Assembly (NCBI GenBank): GCA_029262835.1
Contig: JAJCYQ010000051.1
Span: 1 to 35,976, forward strand
DNA length: 35,976 nt
Reading direction: 5' to 3'
From: Bacteroidota bacterium
GTDB lineage: Bacteria; Bacteroidota; Rhodothermia; Rhodothermales; UBA10348
In this document: in pieces, positions 16,082 to 19,343 of the stretch
How positions within the stretch are numbered: position 1 is the first letter of the stretch
How the letters are laid out: each line of letters begins with the position of its first letter
Notes under the pieces: generated by a model
Databases searched by the model: none
Told to the model about the DNA's origin: nothing
Seen by the model: the letters and a program-made list of their open reading frames with translations, nothing else
Translations under genes and position numbers: made by a program

Positions 16082-16558
16082 TTATGACGGGTTGATGACA
16101 TAGGGTTCTACGGGTACCGAACGCGTATCCTTGAATGACGACAGGACGATACTTGTGGATGTTCCATGGACGCCCGGCCAGGACTGGATGGCGCCCAGCA
16201 GTTGCTCAAGGGCCTGTGTATTGCGAACCAGAACGCGGAGGATATGCGATCCTTCTCCCGTGATGGAGTGGACCTCCTGCACCTCGTGGAGCGCCTCCGC
16301 CTTGGCGACAAACGCCGCGTAGTGCGTCGACTGATCTATCTGGACGCGGATGAACGCCGAAATGTCAAAGCCAACGCGACGGGGCGCCACAACAGCGTTA
16401 TAACCCTGGATGACACCACGCCCTTCCAGCTTGCGCATGCGGTCGCTGACCGCTGGGACTGAAAGACCAACAGCCTCGGCAATCCGGTTCCTCTTCATGC
16501 GCCCCTGGTCCTGCAGCAATTGCAGGATCTGGACGTCGATCGCGTCTACTCTTTCCAT
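16082..16558 (-). CDS. Lrp/AsnC family transcriptional regulator
   Basis: 158 residues. The N-terminal winged helix-turn-helix (about 6-55) reads VDAIDVQILQLLQDQGRMKR and RIAEAVGLSVPAVSDRMRKLEG. An AsnC/RAM ligand-binding domain follows (about 68-145), with the GEGSHILRVLVRNTQALEQLL segment. Such proteins form octameric discs that sense amino acids. Its position directly upstream of glnN suggests control of nitrogen assimilation by an amino acid such as glutamine or leucine (inference). An inverted repeat in its own upstream region could be an autoregulatory site. Confidence 0.95.
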   Translation of the reverse strand: MERVDAIDVQILQLLQDQGRMKRNRIAEAVGLSVPAVSDRMRKLEGRGVIQGYNAVVAPRRVGFDISAFIRVQIDQSTHYAAFVAKAEALHEVQEVHSITGEGSHILRVLVRNTQALEQLLGAIQSWPGVHGTSTSIVLSSFKDTRSVPVEPYVINPS

Positions 16559-16616: not shown

Positions 16617-16725
16617 GAAAAACAAATGCTCCAATGACAGCATTCTTAACATTCAGTTGACATACTTCACACCCGGCCAGCTTCCAGGAACTACGCCCAC
16701 ACCCGATTCGTTGTCCCGCGCTATC

Positions 16726-16798
16726 GGGCCCGTAGCTCAGTGGTTAGAGCTGCCGACTCATAATCGGTAGGTCGCAGGTTCAAATCCTGCCGGGCCCA
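16726..16798 (+). tRNA. tRNA with CAU anticodon, probably tRNA-Ile2 (alternatively elongator Met)
   Basis: A 73-base cloverleaf with discriminator A at 16798. The acceptor stem is GGGCCCG/CGGGCCC. The anticodon stem is GCCGA/TCGGT (one G-U pair), with loop CTCATAA and anticodon CAT at 16759-16761. The T-loop is TTCAAAT. CCA is not encoded. A CAU anticodon can be Met or lysidine-modified Ile2. The acceptor pairs C4-G69 and C5-G68 and the D-arm AGCTCAGTGGTTAGAGC resemble E. coli tRNA-Ile2 (ileX) more than elongator Met, so Ile2 is favoured. Confidence 0.93.
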
Positions 16799-16918
16799 CA
16801 CCCGATCTGCTCGTGGCAGGTTACGTGCTGCCTCCTCATGTGTTTATGTGATCCAGGGAGTGATGGATTGGCCATCGCCCCACCTGGAGAACACACAACC
16901 AAACATGGAGGAGAGAGA

Positions 16919-17809
16919 ATGAGGAAGTTGACATTACCCGTCGCAGCTGCCGTCGGCGCAGTCGTGCTGCTGTCGGCCTGCGACGCAAACAACCACCAGG
17001 CCGGAAGCGAAACCGGTACATCGGATCGAGAGGAAGTGGCCACGCGCATTTCTTCGGAAGAACTTGGAGCGCTCCATTACGACGCGCTCGTCCAGTTGCT
17101 GTCCGATGTCCAGAATGTCGAGCCGGGATCCGGTAAGACGCCCCTTGACGGACGAAACATCGCCAAAGAAAGCTGCAGGCGCTTTCTGAAAAGCCAGTCC
17201 TCCCCGCTATTCAATGAAGCGGACTGCGGAGAGAGCATGGACGCATTCCGTTCATTCACGGACCGTAATCTGAAAGGGGCGACCGGGTACGCAGGAGGCA
17301 TGATGAACGTCCTCGGAACATCCAGTGCGTACTCCCAAGGTCAACTCACTGCCATAGATGACGTGCTCAAAACCCTGGATTCAGCCAATTGGACGGAGGA
17401 TGAATATGCCTCCCAGAAGGTCTCGATCGAGTTGGACCGCATTCTGGAAGACAGCCGTAGTGTGCTGACCGAAGACGAGTTCGTGGCGGTCCATGACGTC
17501 ATCGCTGTCGCACGCGGGTCGGCGGCGTTCTGGTCCGAGTACACGGACGACCTTATCATGGCCTATGCGGACATGTATGGCGTCACGTTGGATATTGAGC
17601 TGGGAAAAGATGTCGTACTGGCGTGTAGTCTCGGCAAGATCCTTGGATTCAGCTGTGCGGGTGTAGCCTTGTCTGATGTCAGCGGAGCAGCCGGGGGAGC
17701 AGCCGTTGGTCTGATATTCGGTCCATCCGTACTGGCTGGTGCCGGTGGAGGTGCTGTAGCTGGCTCGGTGGAAAACGGCGTGTCCCAGATTCTGTCCATC
17801 TTCAATTGA
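16919..17809 (+). CDS. Predicted lipoprotein with glycine-rich C-terminus, unknown
   Basis: 296 residues from the ATG at 16919, chosen because GGAGGAGAG lies just upstream and the protein then starts with a clean lipoprotein signal (MRKLTLPVAAAVGAVVLLSAC, lipidation at Cys21). Residues 30-245 are soluble and acidic, with cysteines around 82, 93 and 239-250 (approximate). The last 60 residues (SGAAGGAAVGLIFGPSVLAG and onwards) are a glycine-zipper-like hydrophobic segment, as seen in membrane-inserting or pore-forming peptides. No family is recognised. It sits 120 bases after a tRNA and is followed by a small membrane protein, so it may belong to a small acquired islet. Confidence 0.8.
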   Translation: MRKLTLPVAAAVGAVVLLSACDANNHQAGSETGTSDREEVATRISSEELGALHYDALVQLLSDVQNVEPGSGKTPLDGRNIAKESCRRFLKSQSSPLFNEADCGESMDAFRSFTDRNLKGATGYAGGMMNVLGTSSAYSQGQLTAIDDVLKTLDSANWTEDEYASQKVSIELDRILEDSRSVLTEDEFVAVHDVIAVARGSAAFWSEYTDDLIMAYADMYGVTLDIELGKDVVLACSLGKILGFSCAGVALSDVSGAAGGAAVGLIFGPSVLAGAGGGAVAGSVENGVSQILSIFN

Positions 17810-17820
17810 ACGCAGACATC

Positions 17821-18039
17821 ATGTTGACCAAATCCTTTTTCGCTGGCCTTTTGGCTGCCACTGTTGCACTCACCTTCCATTATCTGCTGCTCGATGACTG
17901 GACCGAGGGCATCTCACCATCGATTGCTACGGGCGTGGCCCTGTTCGCGCTCGTGCTGTGGTCTGAGTGGAAGCGTGGACGCTCGCAGCCAGGTCAGCCT
18001 ACGCCGGAGGAGCGGGAGTCAGCAAAGCAAAGCGAATAG
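17821..18039 (+). CDS. Small membrane protein downstream of the glycine-zipper lipoprotein
   Basis: 72 residues from the ATG at 17821; a TTG at 17806 would add five residues and overlap the upstream stop. It has two hydrophobic helices (about 5-23 and 36-53), then a charged tail rich in Glu, Lys and Pro. No known family. The 11-base gap to the lipoprotein gene indicates one transcript, which could make it an accessory or protective partner (inference). A strong hairpin follows the stop. Confidence 0.6.
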   Translation: MLTKSFFAGLLAATVALTFHYLLLDDWTEGISPSIATGVALFALVLWSEWKRGRSQPGQPTPEERESAKQSE

Positions 18040-18043
18040 GATC

Positions 18044-18077
18044 GGGCCGGGGGCAAGTGATAGCGCGCCCCCGGCCC
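18044..18077. terminator. Hairpin between convergent genes, likely bidirectional terminator
   Basis: GGGCCGGGGGC at 18044-18054 pairs perfectly with GCCCCCGGCCC at 18067-18077 around a 12-base loop. It fills the gap between the small membrane protein stop (18039) and the rodA stop (18084). There is no T-tract on either side, so intrinsic termination may be inefficient or need a factor. Confidence 0.55.
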
Positions 18078-18083
18078 CCCCGT

Positions 18084-19343
18084 TCAGTACCCGTAGATCG
18101 AAAAGTCGTCGCGCCGCATGTAGAGCGAGACGACGATGGCAAGGAGTGCCGAGTTGGCCAGCAGCGCCGATCCTCCGTACGACACGAAAGGCAGCGGAAT
18201 GCCGATTACCGGCAACATGGACGTGGCCATGCCGATATTGACGAACATGTGGATCAGGTAAATACCCGCCGCACCGGCTGCCACCATGACACCGAAAGGG
18301 TGCTTCATGCGCGTTCCAAGCGTAACGAGACGTACCAGCAGGCCAAGGAACAGCGCCAACAACAGAACGGCGCCGACAAACCCGAACTCTTCCCCGATCA
18401 CCGAAAAAATGAAGTCCGTGGACTGCTCCGGGACATAGGCTCCCTGCGTCTGGGTGCCTTCCAGAAACCCCTTACCGGAAAATCCGCCCGAGCCAATGGC
18501 GGCCATGGATTGAAGCTGGTGAAAGCCCGCGTTATCCCGGAACTCAGCCGCTCCCGGGTTGGTGAACGACAAGACGCGTGCCAGCTGATAGGGCTGAAGG
18601 ACTTTGGCCATGGCGAACGAGGCGACCGCCGTGGTGCCGCCCGCAAACAGGGCCGCGACGCCTGCGACGCGCCTGTCTCGGGTCCGCCACCACATGAACG
18701 CCGTGAATACGAGAGCGAACACAATCGCCGATGGCGTGTGCACGACCGACAGATATCCAGCAACGGCGGGCGCCAGCATGAGCAGCAGAATATCGAACTC
18801 AAGGCCACTCCAGAACAGGGCAATGGGAATCAGGCCAAGGAAGACAAGGGCCGTTCCTGTATCGTTCTGTGCCAGGATGATCATGGCCGGCAACAGGGCA
18901 ATGCCGACGATGGAGAGTCCAACGCTCAGGCCCATGGTCTTTGGCCGCCGCATGCCCACGAGCTGCGCGAGCGCCAGAACCGTGCCCACCTTGGCAAATT
19001 CAGAGACCTGGAATTGCGCCGGGCCCACAGCGAGCCAGGCCTTGGCCCCGTTTATTTCCCGCCCGAACAGCAGCGCCGCCAGCAGAAACAGGATGGTGAG
19101 CGCATAGGCGGGGAACGCGGCCAGTTGAAGAAACCGGATGGGCAACATCAGGATGATCACAAAGCTGACCGCGCTGATGACGAACCACATCACCTGGCGA
19201 TCGAAGTTCTGGCGAGGCGTCGATGTGTAGAGCTCGGCTGCCGCGCCGTGCGTCGTGGAATAAATAGCCGCCAGGCCCGCCCCGATCAAGAGCAACCACA
19301 GAACCAGCGTGGCTGCATCGATTTTGCTGTACCAGGAGTTCAT
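18084..19343 (-). CDS. rodA: Rod-shape-determining protein RodA (SEDS glycosyltransferase)
   Basis: 419 residues, about ten membrane helices, SEDS family. Characteristic segments are GREINGAKAWLAVGPAQFQVSEFAKVG, AQNDTGTALVFLGL, the EEFGFVGA motif and the C-terminal GIPLPFVSYGGSALL signature. RodA polymerises lipid II glycan strands during lateral wall growth and works with PBP2. Its start overlaps the mrdA stop by four bases, so the two partners are co-translated. It converges on the lipoprotein islet. Confidence 0.96.
   Translation of the reverse strand: MNSWYSKIDAATLVLWLLLIGAGLAAIYSTTHGAAAELYTSTPRQNFDRQVMWFVISAVSFVIILMLPIRFLQLAAFPAYALTILFLLAALLFGREINGAKAWLAVGPAQFQVSEFAKVGTVLALAQLVGMRRPKTMGLSVGLSIVGIALLPAMIILAQNDTGTALVFLGLIPIALFWSGLEFDILLLMLAPAVAGYLSVVHTPSAIVFALVFTAFMWWRTRDRRVAGVAALFAGGTTAVASFAMAKVLQPYQLARVLSFTNPGAAEFRDNAGFHQLQSMAAIGSGGFSGKGFLEGTQTQGAYVPEQSTDFIFSVIGEEFGFVGAVLLLALFLGLLVRLVTLGTRMKHPFGVMVAAGAAGIYLIHMFVNIGMATSMLPVIGIPLPFVSYGGSALLANSALLAIVVSLYMRRDDFSIYGY

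What the first reader, a model, noticed from the sequence alone, without database searches (positions are those of the whole stretch)
16726..18077. tRNA-adjacent islet: glycine-zipper lipoprotein plus small membrane protein
Two unrecognised genes lie between a tRNA and a hairpin. The lipoprotein ends in a glycine-zipper-like hydrophobic segment reminiscent of pore-forming peptides, and the 72-residue membrane protein follows at once, like an immunity or accessory partner. Its ribosome site is also stronger than most in the window. A contact-dependent or stress-related membrane-active pair is possible (inference).
Basis: partly seen in the sequence, partly recalled or inferred. Interest (0 to 1): 0.5.

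Follow-up and report, generated by a model that had tools for sequence, protein, structure and literature searches.

The report
Bacterial membrane toxin with likely antidote
Two small neighbouring genes beside a tRNA look like a membrane-attacking toxin on a lipid anchor and the antidote that protects its maker, part of a large and apparently unnamed family spread through the Bacteroidota.

Summary
In detail: a 296-aa lipoprotein gene (16919-17809) and a 72-aa membrane-protein gene (17821-18039) lie between a tRNA (16726-16799) and a hairpin (18044-18077). Near relatives differ: same-genus G001 has both genes after this tRNA, G003 has an empty site, G002 has other genes there. The lipoprotein fits no Pfam or NCBIfam family, but profile searches link it to a broad Bacteroidota family with G-x-x-H-[NY] and S-x-x-[YF]-W motifs and usually a glycine-rich end. 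Three findings in that family suggest toxin plus immunity. (1) A small gene with two or more predicted membrane segments directly follows the family gene in 10 of 30 clusters, against 2 of 197 control ORFs. (2) In G1011 and G1170, copies 96-99% identical in DNA up to one point then carry four different glycine-rich ends, each with a different membrane gene. (3) One pair is cargo of a 3.3-kb plasmid. Best reading: a polymorphic, lipid-anchored, membrane-active bacteriocin-like toxin with its immunity protein. Toxicity, immunity, surface display and contact dependence are untested; 20 of 30 clusters lack the partner by my criterion. Relatives beside lanthionine-synthesis genes hint that the conserved part is a general carrier.

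The parts
16726..16799 (+). tRNA with CAT anticodon, left border of the islet; the pair is transcribed in the same direction
   Evidence: ARAGORN, Rfam RF00005 77.1 bits; a CAT tRNA was found in 11 of the 13 fetched stretches around the Lrp-type gene in the family, those of G001, G002 and G003 among them
16907..16911 (+). GGAGG ribosome-binding site of the lipoprotein gene
   Evidence: among the best 3 of 25 listed starts in the window; GGAGG also precedes the G001 gene (alignment)
16919..17809 (+). lipoprotein gene, 296 aa: signal peptide and lipobox, helical domain with conserved motifs, glycine-zipper C-terminus; proposed toxin
   Evidence: homologue in G001 (67%), distant family; all-helix low-confidence model
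16919..16981 (+). signal peptide II with lipobox L-S-A-C (Cys21)
   Evidence: sequence; conserved in G001; read by eye, no signal-peptide program was run
17066..17080 (+). family motif G-x-x-H-[NY] (residues 50-54, GALHY)
   Evidence: G, H and N are invariant in 10 aligned Bacteroidia members; located in the window
17519..17533 (+). family motif S-x-x-[FY]-W (residues 201-205, SAAFW)
   Evidence: W invariant and S nearly invariant; inside the profile-profile match
17675..17794 (+). glycine-zipper, hydrophobic C-terminus (residues 253-292); proposed membrane-active part
   Evidence: corresponds to the end that switches in the G1011/G1170 arrays
17821..18039 (+). 72-aa membrane protein with two predicted membrane segments; proposed immunity protein
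   Evidence: conserved in G001 at 63%; no full-length relative among the 117 other genomes searched; small membrane genes at the same place in part of the wider family
18044..18077 (.). GC-rich hairpin ending the islet, probably shared with rodA (stop at 18084, other strand)
   Evidence: -31.6 kcal/mol, z -3.5; similar hairpins in G001 after the small gene and in G003 directly after the tRNA

Best explanation
The two genes are a toxin and immunity pair. The lipoprotein is exported, lipid-anchored in the envelope and probably shown at the cell surface. Its helical body (with the G-x-x-H-[NY] and S-x-x-[YF]-W motifs) carries a C-terminal glycine-zipper segment that inserts into the membrane of a competing cell and permeabilises it. 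The 72-aa two-helix protein sits in the producer's own inner membrane and blocks that segment. Shown here: gene structure, patchy presence at one tRNA site, family membership, the partner arrangement in part of the family, and C-terminal switching with different partners in related arrays. Inferred: toxicity, pore formation, immunity, surface display, and how the toxin reaches another cell.
For: Patchy presence: 2 of 100 relatives; present in G001, empty in G003 although G003 is slightly closer by Lrp (93% v 91%) and by RodA (94% v 88%). Family link: G379 protein at E=8e-6; profile-profile probability 97.8%, E 8e-13 against 10 Bacteroidia members. Partner: a 40-180-aa ORF with at least 2 predicted membrane segments starts within -45..+60 nt of the end of 16 of 51 family genes (the window pair being one) against 2 of 197 control ORFs (Fisher p 1.4e-10), or in 10 of 30 clusters (p 2e-8). 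Polymorphism: array copies in G1011/G1170 share 96-99% DNA identity over 93-391 bp up to about the codons for Trp-Trp and then lose similarity unless they carry the same end; four different intact ends are each followed by a different membrane protein of 93, 109, 155 or 171 aa. Domain shuffling: L153, L154, L155 and L158 carry the glycine-rich part before the HN...YW part, again with a small membrane gene 1-4 nt downstream (that of L158 is scored with one segment). Plasmid: the G379 gene and partner occupy a 3,377-bp contig with 77-bp identical ends and a Rep_3 initiator. Decay: the G248 gene has stops inside while its two-helix neighbour is open. Precedents: BcpT, a plasmid-borne Bacteroidales lipoprotein toxin (passages); CdzC/D, glycine-zipper killers with membrane immunity protein CdzI (passages); SitA, modular lipoprotein toxins (passages).
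Against: No activity is shown for any member. Twenty of 30 clusters (35 of 51 genes) lack the small membrane partner by the criterion used; some instead have a 180-230-aa secreted or barrel-like neighbour (judged by eye) or nothing near. The gene list was made by eye after the pattern was noticed, so the p-values are descriptive. Between the window and G001 the C-terminus is the most conserved part (86% v 58% for residues 1-195), unlike a fast-switching toxin tip. The array copies run to contig ends and only fragments were found, so no full-length gene heading an array was seen. The glycine periodicity is only modestly above shuffles. The structure model is poor (pLDDT 48.7). Cys21 is followed by Asp, which in E. 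coli favours inner-membrane retention (recalled), so surface display is uncertain.
Confidence: 0.6

Rival explanations
1. An envelope lipoprotein of the glycine-zipper sort (structural or stress-related), with a small membrane protein of related housekeeping function; no toxin.
For: The G001 copy shows weak similarity to the YMGG-like Gly-zipper family (E 0.035, 14.3 bits against a cut-off of 28.9); the lipoprotein is under purifying selection; 20 of 30 clusters lack a two-helix partner.
Against: No Pfam or NCBIfam match at threshold; patchy presence and empty site; in the wider family, C-terminal switching with changing partners, plasmid carriage, and a broken gene beside an open partner.
Confidence: 0.15
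2. The conserved HN...YW domain is a long leader or carrier whose C-terminus is cut off and matured, as for modified peptides; the window protein is an unmodified member of such precursors and the small protein is its immunity or export helper.
For: In G998 two family proteins lie beside S41 peptidase, LanC-like and lantibiotic dehydratase genes, one with a Cys/Ser-rich tail; in G1275 a family protein with a Cys-rich tail is followed by a LanC-like gene.
Against: None of the 10 window ORFs scanned around the pair (7253-27598) is of that kind; the members beside Lan genes lack a signal peptide, whereas the window protein is a lipoprotein; peptide cleavage not shown.
Confidence: 0.12
3. A maintenance or exclusion module of mobile DNA: the pair stabilises plasmids or islets by post-segregational killing, or blocks entry of rivals, rather than attacking neighbours.
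For: Cargo of a 3.3-kb Rep_3 plasmid in G379; the distantly related plasmid pFB1 carries a Phd/YoeB-type addiction pair; tRNA site with variable content; the 53-aa partner in G379 has a weak match to a PADLOC two-membrane-segment effector (E 0.021).
Against: A signal peptide and lipobox point outward; C-terminal switching fits rivalry between strains better than addiction (inference); no integrase or replication gene among the 10 window ORFs scanned; no PADLOC match for the window proteins.
Confidence: 0.08

Closest known systems
CdzC/CdzD with CdzI (Caulobacter; PMC5380434)
   Same: glycine-zipper proteins held at the producer's surface, kill on contact, small inner-membrane immunity protein (passages)
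   Different: CdzC/D are 86 and 84 aa and use a type I secretion system; CdzI has three predicted membrane segments; here a 296-aa lipoprotein with no secretion gene among the scanned neighbours; sequences not compared directly
SitA/SitI polymorphic lipoprotein toxins of myxobacteria (PMC8546572)
   Same: lipoprotein, conserved N-terminal escort domain, polymorphic C-terminal toxin, immunity gene in the same operon, often on mobile DNA (passages)
   Different: SitA C-termini are nucleases delivered by TraAB-mediated outer membrane exchange; here the end is glycine-rich and membrane-active by prediction; no TraA/B search was made
BcpT/BcpI of Phocaeicola (PMC9308784)
   Same: Bacteroidota lipoprotein toxin on a small plasmid, toxic C-terminal fragment, small immunity protein (passages)
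   Different: 499 aa, activated by C11 proteases at two LTR sites, immunity protein is itself a lipoprotein; sequence relationship to this family not tested
APD1/APD2 lipobox prodomains of Amoebophilus asiaticus (PMC3482391)
   Same: Bacteroidota proteins with a lipobox, a conserved N-terminal domain and very polymorphic C-termini (passage)
   Different: described there as effectors directed at the eukaryotic host, not as toxin and immunity pairs; sequence relationship not tested
CDI ionophore toxins and CdiI (PMC11630599)
   Same: polymorphic membrane-depolarising C-termini with highly variable immunity proteins (abstract)
   Different: C-terminal part of CdiA effectors, five-helix ionophore domain; sequences not compared directly
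Glycine-zipper lipoproteins (Pfam PF13441 and kin)
   Same: lipid anchor and glycine-zipper stretch
   Different: no match at threshold; not a core gene; changing partners in the wider family

Membership tests
Polymorphic toxin with immunity (general class) | conserved N-terminal part with C-terminal ends that switch | tested here: met
   met in relatives G1011/G1170, not seen for the window gene itself; window and G001 ends are alike
Polymorphic toxin with immunity (general class) | cognate immunity gene directly downstream | tested here: inconclusive
   a small membrane gene is directly downstream in the window and in all 16 of 51 family genes that pass, against 2 of 197 controls; 35 of 51 lack it by the criterion, L002, L158 and L162 of these having a small membrane ORF that the criterion misses; immunity function not shown
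Polymorphic toxin with immunity (general class) | toxic activity neutralised by the partner | not testable with these tools
   needs expression experiments
SitA lipoprotein toxins | signal peptide II and lipobox | tested here: met
   window Cys21, read by eye; a lipobox pattern in 28 of 51 rows, where the window row is missed only because an upstream start was used, and truncated or permitted signal-less members are among the rest
SitA lipoprotein toxins | nuclease C-terminal domain | tested here: not met
   glycine-rich end; no Pfam domain at E up to 1
SitA lipoprotein toxins | TraA/TraB-dependent transfer | not tested
   no search for TraA/B was made
Cdz system | glycine-zipper motif in the killer protein | tested here: met
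   G256-260-264-268 and G274-278-282, modestly above shuffles; killing not tested
Cdz system | type I secretion genes cdzA/cdzB beside the toxin | tested here: not met
   none among the 10 ORFs scanned between 7253 and 27598, which include the immediate neighbours Lrp/AsnC-type and FtsW/RodA-type
Gly-zipper lipoprotein, PF13441 | Pfam match at curated cut-off | tested here: not met
   no match for the window protein; 14.3 bits against a cut-off of 28.9 for the G001 protein
BcpT | sequence similarity and two LTR cleavage sites | not tested
   BcpT sequence was not fetched

The most novel reading that the evidence does not exclude
Bacteroidota own an unnamed carrier domain (G-x-x-H-N ... S-x-x-Y-W) that delivers interchangeable antibacterial C-termini: glycine-zipper membrane toxins on lipoproteins, with small membrane immunity proteins, and lanthionine-type peptides when LanB/LanC genes are near. 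The window pair would be a simple member in a lineage far from the Bacteroidia ones.
Probability: 0.3. Interest if true: 0.75.

Novelty: new variant of a known kind. Interest (0 to 1): 0.57.

Why it matters
If right, many uncharacterised lipoproteins in Bacteroidota are weapons, part of them with a matching antidote beside them (26 of 148 genomes of one large genus gave a match; three of those loci showed no family ORF on inspection). That would give a handle on strain rivalry in this phylum, new membrane-active antibacterial proteins, and a testable rule for spotting toxin and immunity pairs from glycine-zipper lipoproteins with small membrane neighbours.

Tried and rejected
Rejected or led nowhere: (a) phage or plasmid relatives of the window protein: no tblastn match in 72,556 plasmids or 50,697 phages, and none of 133 candidate stretches in viral contigs was confirmed. 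(b) Known families: Pfam, NCBIfam, PHROGs and PADLOC gave nothing convincing for the window proteins or the relatives scanned; the strongest weak ones were a PADLOC two-membrane-segment effector for the G379 partner (E 0.021) and DUF6861 for one of ten relatives (E 0.003). (c) Solved structures: best E 0.96 for the two-row profile and 0.38 for the ten-row profile. (d) Structure: pLDDT 48.7 from 2 sequences, so no fold search was run. (e) Site-specific integration: repeats in 16650-18150 were a 13-bp pair on either side of the tRNA and two imperfect pairs inside the lipoprotein and small-gene region; no copy of the tRNA end was found at the far border. (f) Orphan small membrane protein: 16 of 119 relatives matched at E up to 0.1; apart from G000 and G001 the matches have E 0.003-0.09, cover part of the query, 10 of 15 of them inside open frames of 181 aa or more, and were taken as chance. 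(g) The G261 match (E 0.004) lies in an acetate-kinase-like ORF (name recalled) and was dropped. (h) Other small plasmids with a related Rep_3 protein: 2 of 39 records inspected; one carries Phd/YoeB, the other an ORF6N protein. (i) No tblastn plasmid match for the G379 protein or for L140.

Rows left out of the 51-gene count, on my inspection: L071, L076, L091-L096, L099, L100, L104, L107, L111-L116, L156, L157, L159, L169 (not family, doubtful, or not resolved), L167 (contig end), a broken third copy in L117, and re-fetched copies of genes already counted. The list was made by eye after the pattern had been noticed, so the p-values are descriptive. An earlier, cruder count gave 7 of 165 ORFs, 4 of the 7 being family members.

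Full report
What is there. Between the tRNA at 16726-16799 and a hairpin at 18044-18077 lie two same-strand genes: a 296-aa lipoprotein (16919-17809) and a 72-aa protein with two predicted membrane segments (17821-18039), 11 nt apart. Left of the tRNA is an Lrp/AsnC-type regulator (16082-16558, minus strand), right of the hairpin an FtsW/RodA-type gene, called rodA here (18084-19343, minus strand). The hairpin is 6 nt from the rodA stop and may end transcription from both sides. No promoter-like or terminator-like pattern was called. As the tRNA and both genes point the same way, read-through from the tRNA promoter is possible (inference).

Is it an islet. Two of 100 relatives have the lipoprotein: the window genome and G001, same genus, 67% identity. 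G001 is the MAG of contig PCUY01000023.1, titled 'Bacteroidetes bacterium'. In G001 both genes follow the same tRNA and are followed by a similar hairpin; the contig then ends and rodA lies on another contig, so the right border is not seen there. G003 is closer to the window by both flanking proteins, slightly so for Lrp (93% v 91%) and more for RodA (94% v 88%), yet has only the tRNA, a hairpin and rodA: an empty site. G002 has about 4.8 kb between tRNA and rodA, with fasciclin, LytTR response regulator, histidine kinase and YdjM genes. Either G003 lost the pair or the site was filled more than once. The lipoprotein is less conserved at DNA level between window and G001 (66%) than Lrp (82%) or RodA (77%); dN/dS is about 0.04 with saturated dS, and 0.27 for the small gene. 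No integrase is among the 10 window ORFs scanned between 7253 and 27598, and the only exact repeat is a 13-bp copy on either side of the tRNA.

What family it belongs to. No Pfam, NCBIfam, PHROGs or PADLOC model fits the window proteins. A two-sequence profile searched against 394 genomes of the phylum gave four genomes: the two known, one spurious match, and G379 at E=8e-6. Searching on with the G379 protein and growing profiles gave 3 of 199 genomes in the family of G379, 3 of 395 in its order, 21 of 395 in its class, 26 of 148 in one large genus and 7 of 46 in another family. These tallies include the query genomes themselves and weak matches that I judged false or could not resolve (listed under Tried and rejected). 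Ten Bacteroidia members align with invariant G, H and N of a G-x-x-H-N motif, an invariant W of S-x-x-[YF]-W, and a glycine-rich end. The window has G50-x-x-H53-Y54, S201-x-x-F-W205 and D253 before the zipper. Profile against profile, window plus G001 match these ten at probability 97.8%, E 8e-13, over columns 143-293; the N-terminal motif lies outside that match. None of the ten has a convincing Pfam or NCBIfam family.

What points to toxin and immunity. First, the partner. Of 51 family genes listed by eye, the window's included, 16 are followed within -45..+60 nt by an ORF of 40-180 aa with at least two predicted membrane segments; of 197 other ORFs of 150 aa or more in the same and neighbouring fetched DNA, 2 are (Fisher p 1.4e-10). 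Grouping the 51 into 30 clusters, 10 clusters have it (p 2e-8). The criterion misses L002, L158 and L162, where a small membrane ORF can be seen. The 35 genes without it often have a secreted 180-230-aa protein next, or nothing close; this is the main weakness.

Second, switching ends. In G1011 and G1170 several truncated copies stand in a row. Pairs of copies share 96-99% DNA identity over 93-391 bp up to about the codons for Trp-Trp and then lose similarity. Two pairs go on beyond that point because they carry the same type of end: one at 99.7% over 700 bp, partner included, between the two genomes, and one with a broken copy at 93% over 143 bp. Four different intact glycine-rich ends are each followed by a different membrane protein of 93, 109, 155 or 171 aa. 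The contigs break within these repeats, so the full-length head gene is not seen; a targeted search of both genomes found only such fragments. This is the layout of spare toxin tips known from polymorphic toxin systems (general knowledge; the abstract of PMC3482391 as listed speaks of recombination with stand-alone toxin cassettes).

Third, mobility and decay. The G379 gene and its 53-aa two-helix partner (4 nt apart) sit on a 3,377-bp contig whose first and last 77 bases are identical, hence probably a 3.3-kb circle, with a Rep_3 initiator and a helix-turn-helix protein. A plasmid of similar size with a 40% identical Rep, pFB1, carries a Phd/YoeB-type pair. In G248 the family gene has stops inside but the two-helix gene is open, as expected if protection outlasts the weapon (inference).

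Fourth, shuffling. Four genes (L153, L154, L155, L158) have the glycine-rich part first and the HN...YW part last, still with a small membrane gene 1-4 nt downstream; that of L158 scores only one segment. In G998 two family proteins without signal peptides lie with S41 peptidase, LanC-like and lantibiotic dehydratase genes; one of them, and a relative in G1275 followed by a LanC-like gene, ends in a Cys-rich tail. So the conserved part may be a carrier for more than one kind of antibacterial end.

Mechanism proposed. Lipid-anchored export, probably surface display, insertion of the glycine-zipper end into a target membrane, and protection of the producer by the two-helix protein. Only architecture and distribution are shown. 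Toxicity, pore formation, immunity and contact are inferred from CdzC/D-CdzI (passages of PMC5380434), CDI ionophores (abstract of PMC11630599), SitA (passages of PMC8546572) and BcpT (passages of PMC9308784). Against: between window and G001 the C-terminus is more conserved (86%) than residues 1-195 (58%); the glycine spacing is only modestly above shuffles; the structure model is poor; Asp follows the lipidated Cys.

Novelty. Nine literature searches listed no paper whose title or abstract start describes this family. The listings were cut at 10-20 rows in some searches and subscription papers are mostly not held, so this is not proof. The pieces of the idea are known (lipoprotein toxins, glycine-zipper killers, polymorphic ends, and lipobox prodomains with polymorphic ends in Amoebophilus, passage of PMC3482391); this family and its combination of features appear undescribed: a new variant of a known kind.

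Searches replaced names given by eye; the identity range of the array copies, the repeat list, the lipobox count and the small-gene dN/dS were corrected or added.

Noticed in passing
window 16695-16707 and 16794-16806: A 13-bp exact repeat stands on either side of the tRNA, its second copy starting inside the tRNA 3' end; the upstream copy is not in G001 or G003 by the alignment.
   Followed up: partly
window 16726-16799: The CAT-anticodon tRNA is called Met by ARAGORN but could be tRNA-Ile2; not resolved.
   Followed up: no
L121 1105-9000 (G998): Two family proteins without signal peptide beside S41 peptidase, LanC-like and lantibiotic dehydratase genes, one with a Cys/Ser-rich tail.
   Followed up: partly
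L073 (G379 contig 46): Apparent 3.3-kb circular plasmid with Rep_3 initiator, HTH protein, family lipoprotein and a 53-aa two-helix protein.
   Followed up: yes
L153, L154, L155, L158: Family proteins with the glycine-rich and HN...YW parts in swapped order, each with a small membrane gene 1-4 nt downstream.
   Followed up: partly
L075 1981-2835 (G499): A CAAX-protease-type membrane gene (Pfam Rce1-like) directly before a truncated family gene; such proteases are linked to bacteriocin immunity elsewhere (recalled).
   Followed up: partly
L055 1350-6032 (G002): The same tRNA-rodA interval in G002 holds unrelated genes (fasciclin, LytTR regulator, histidine kinase, YdjM), so the site is variable in the genus.
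   Followed up: partly
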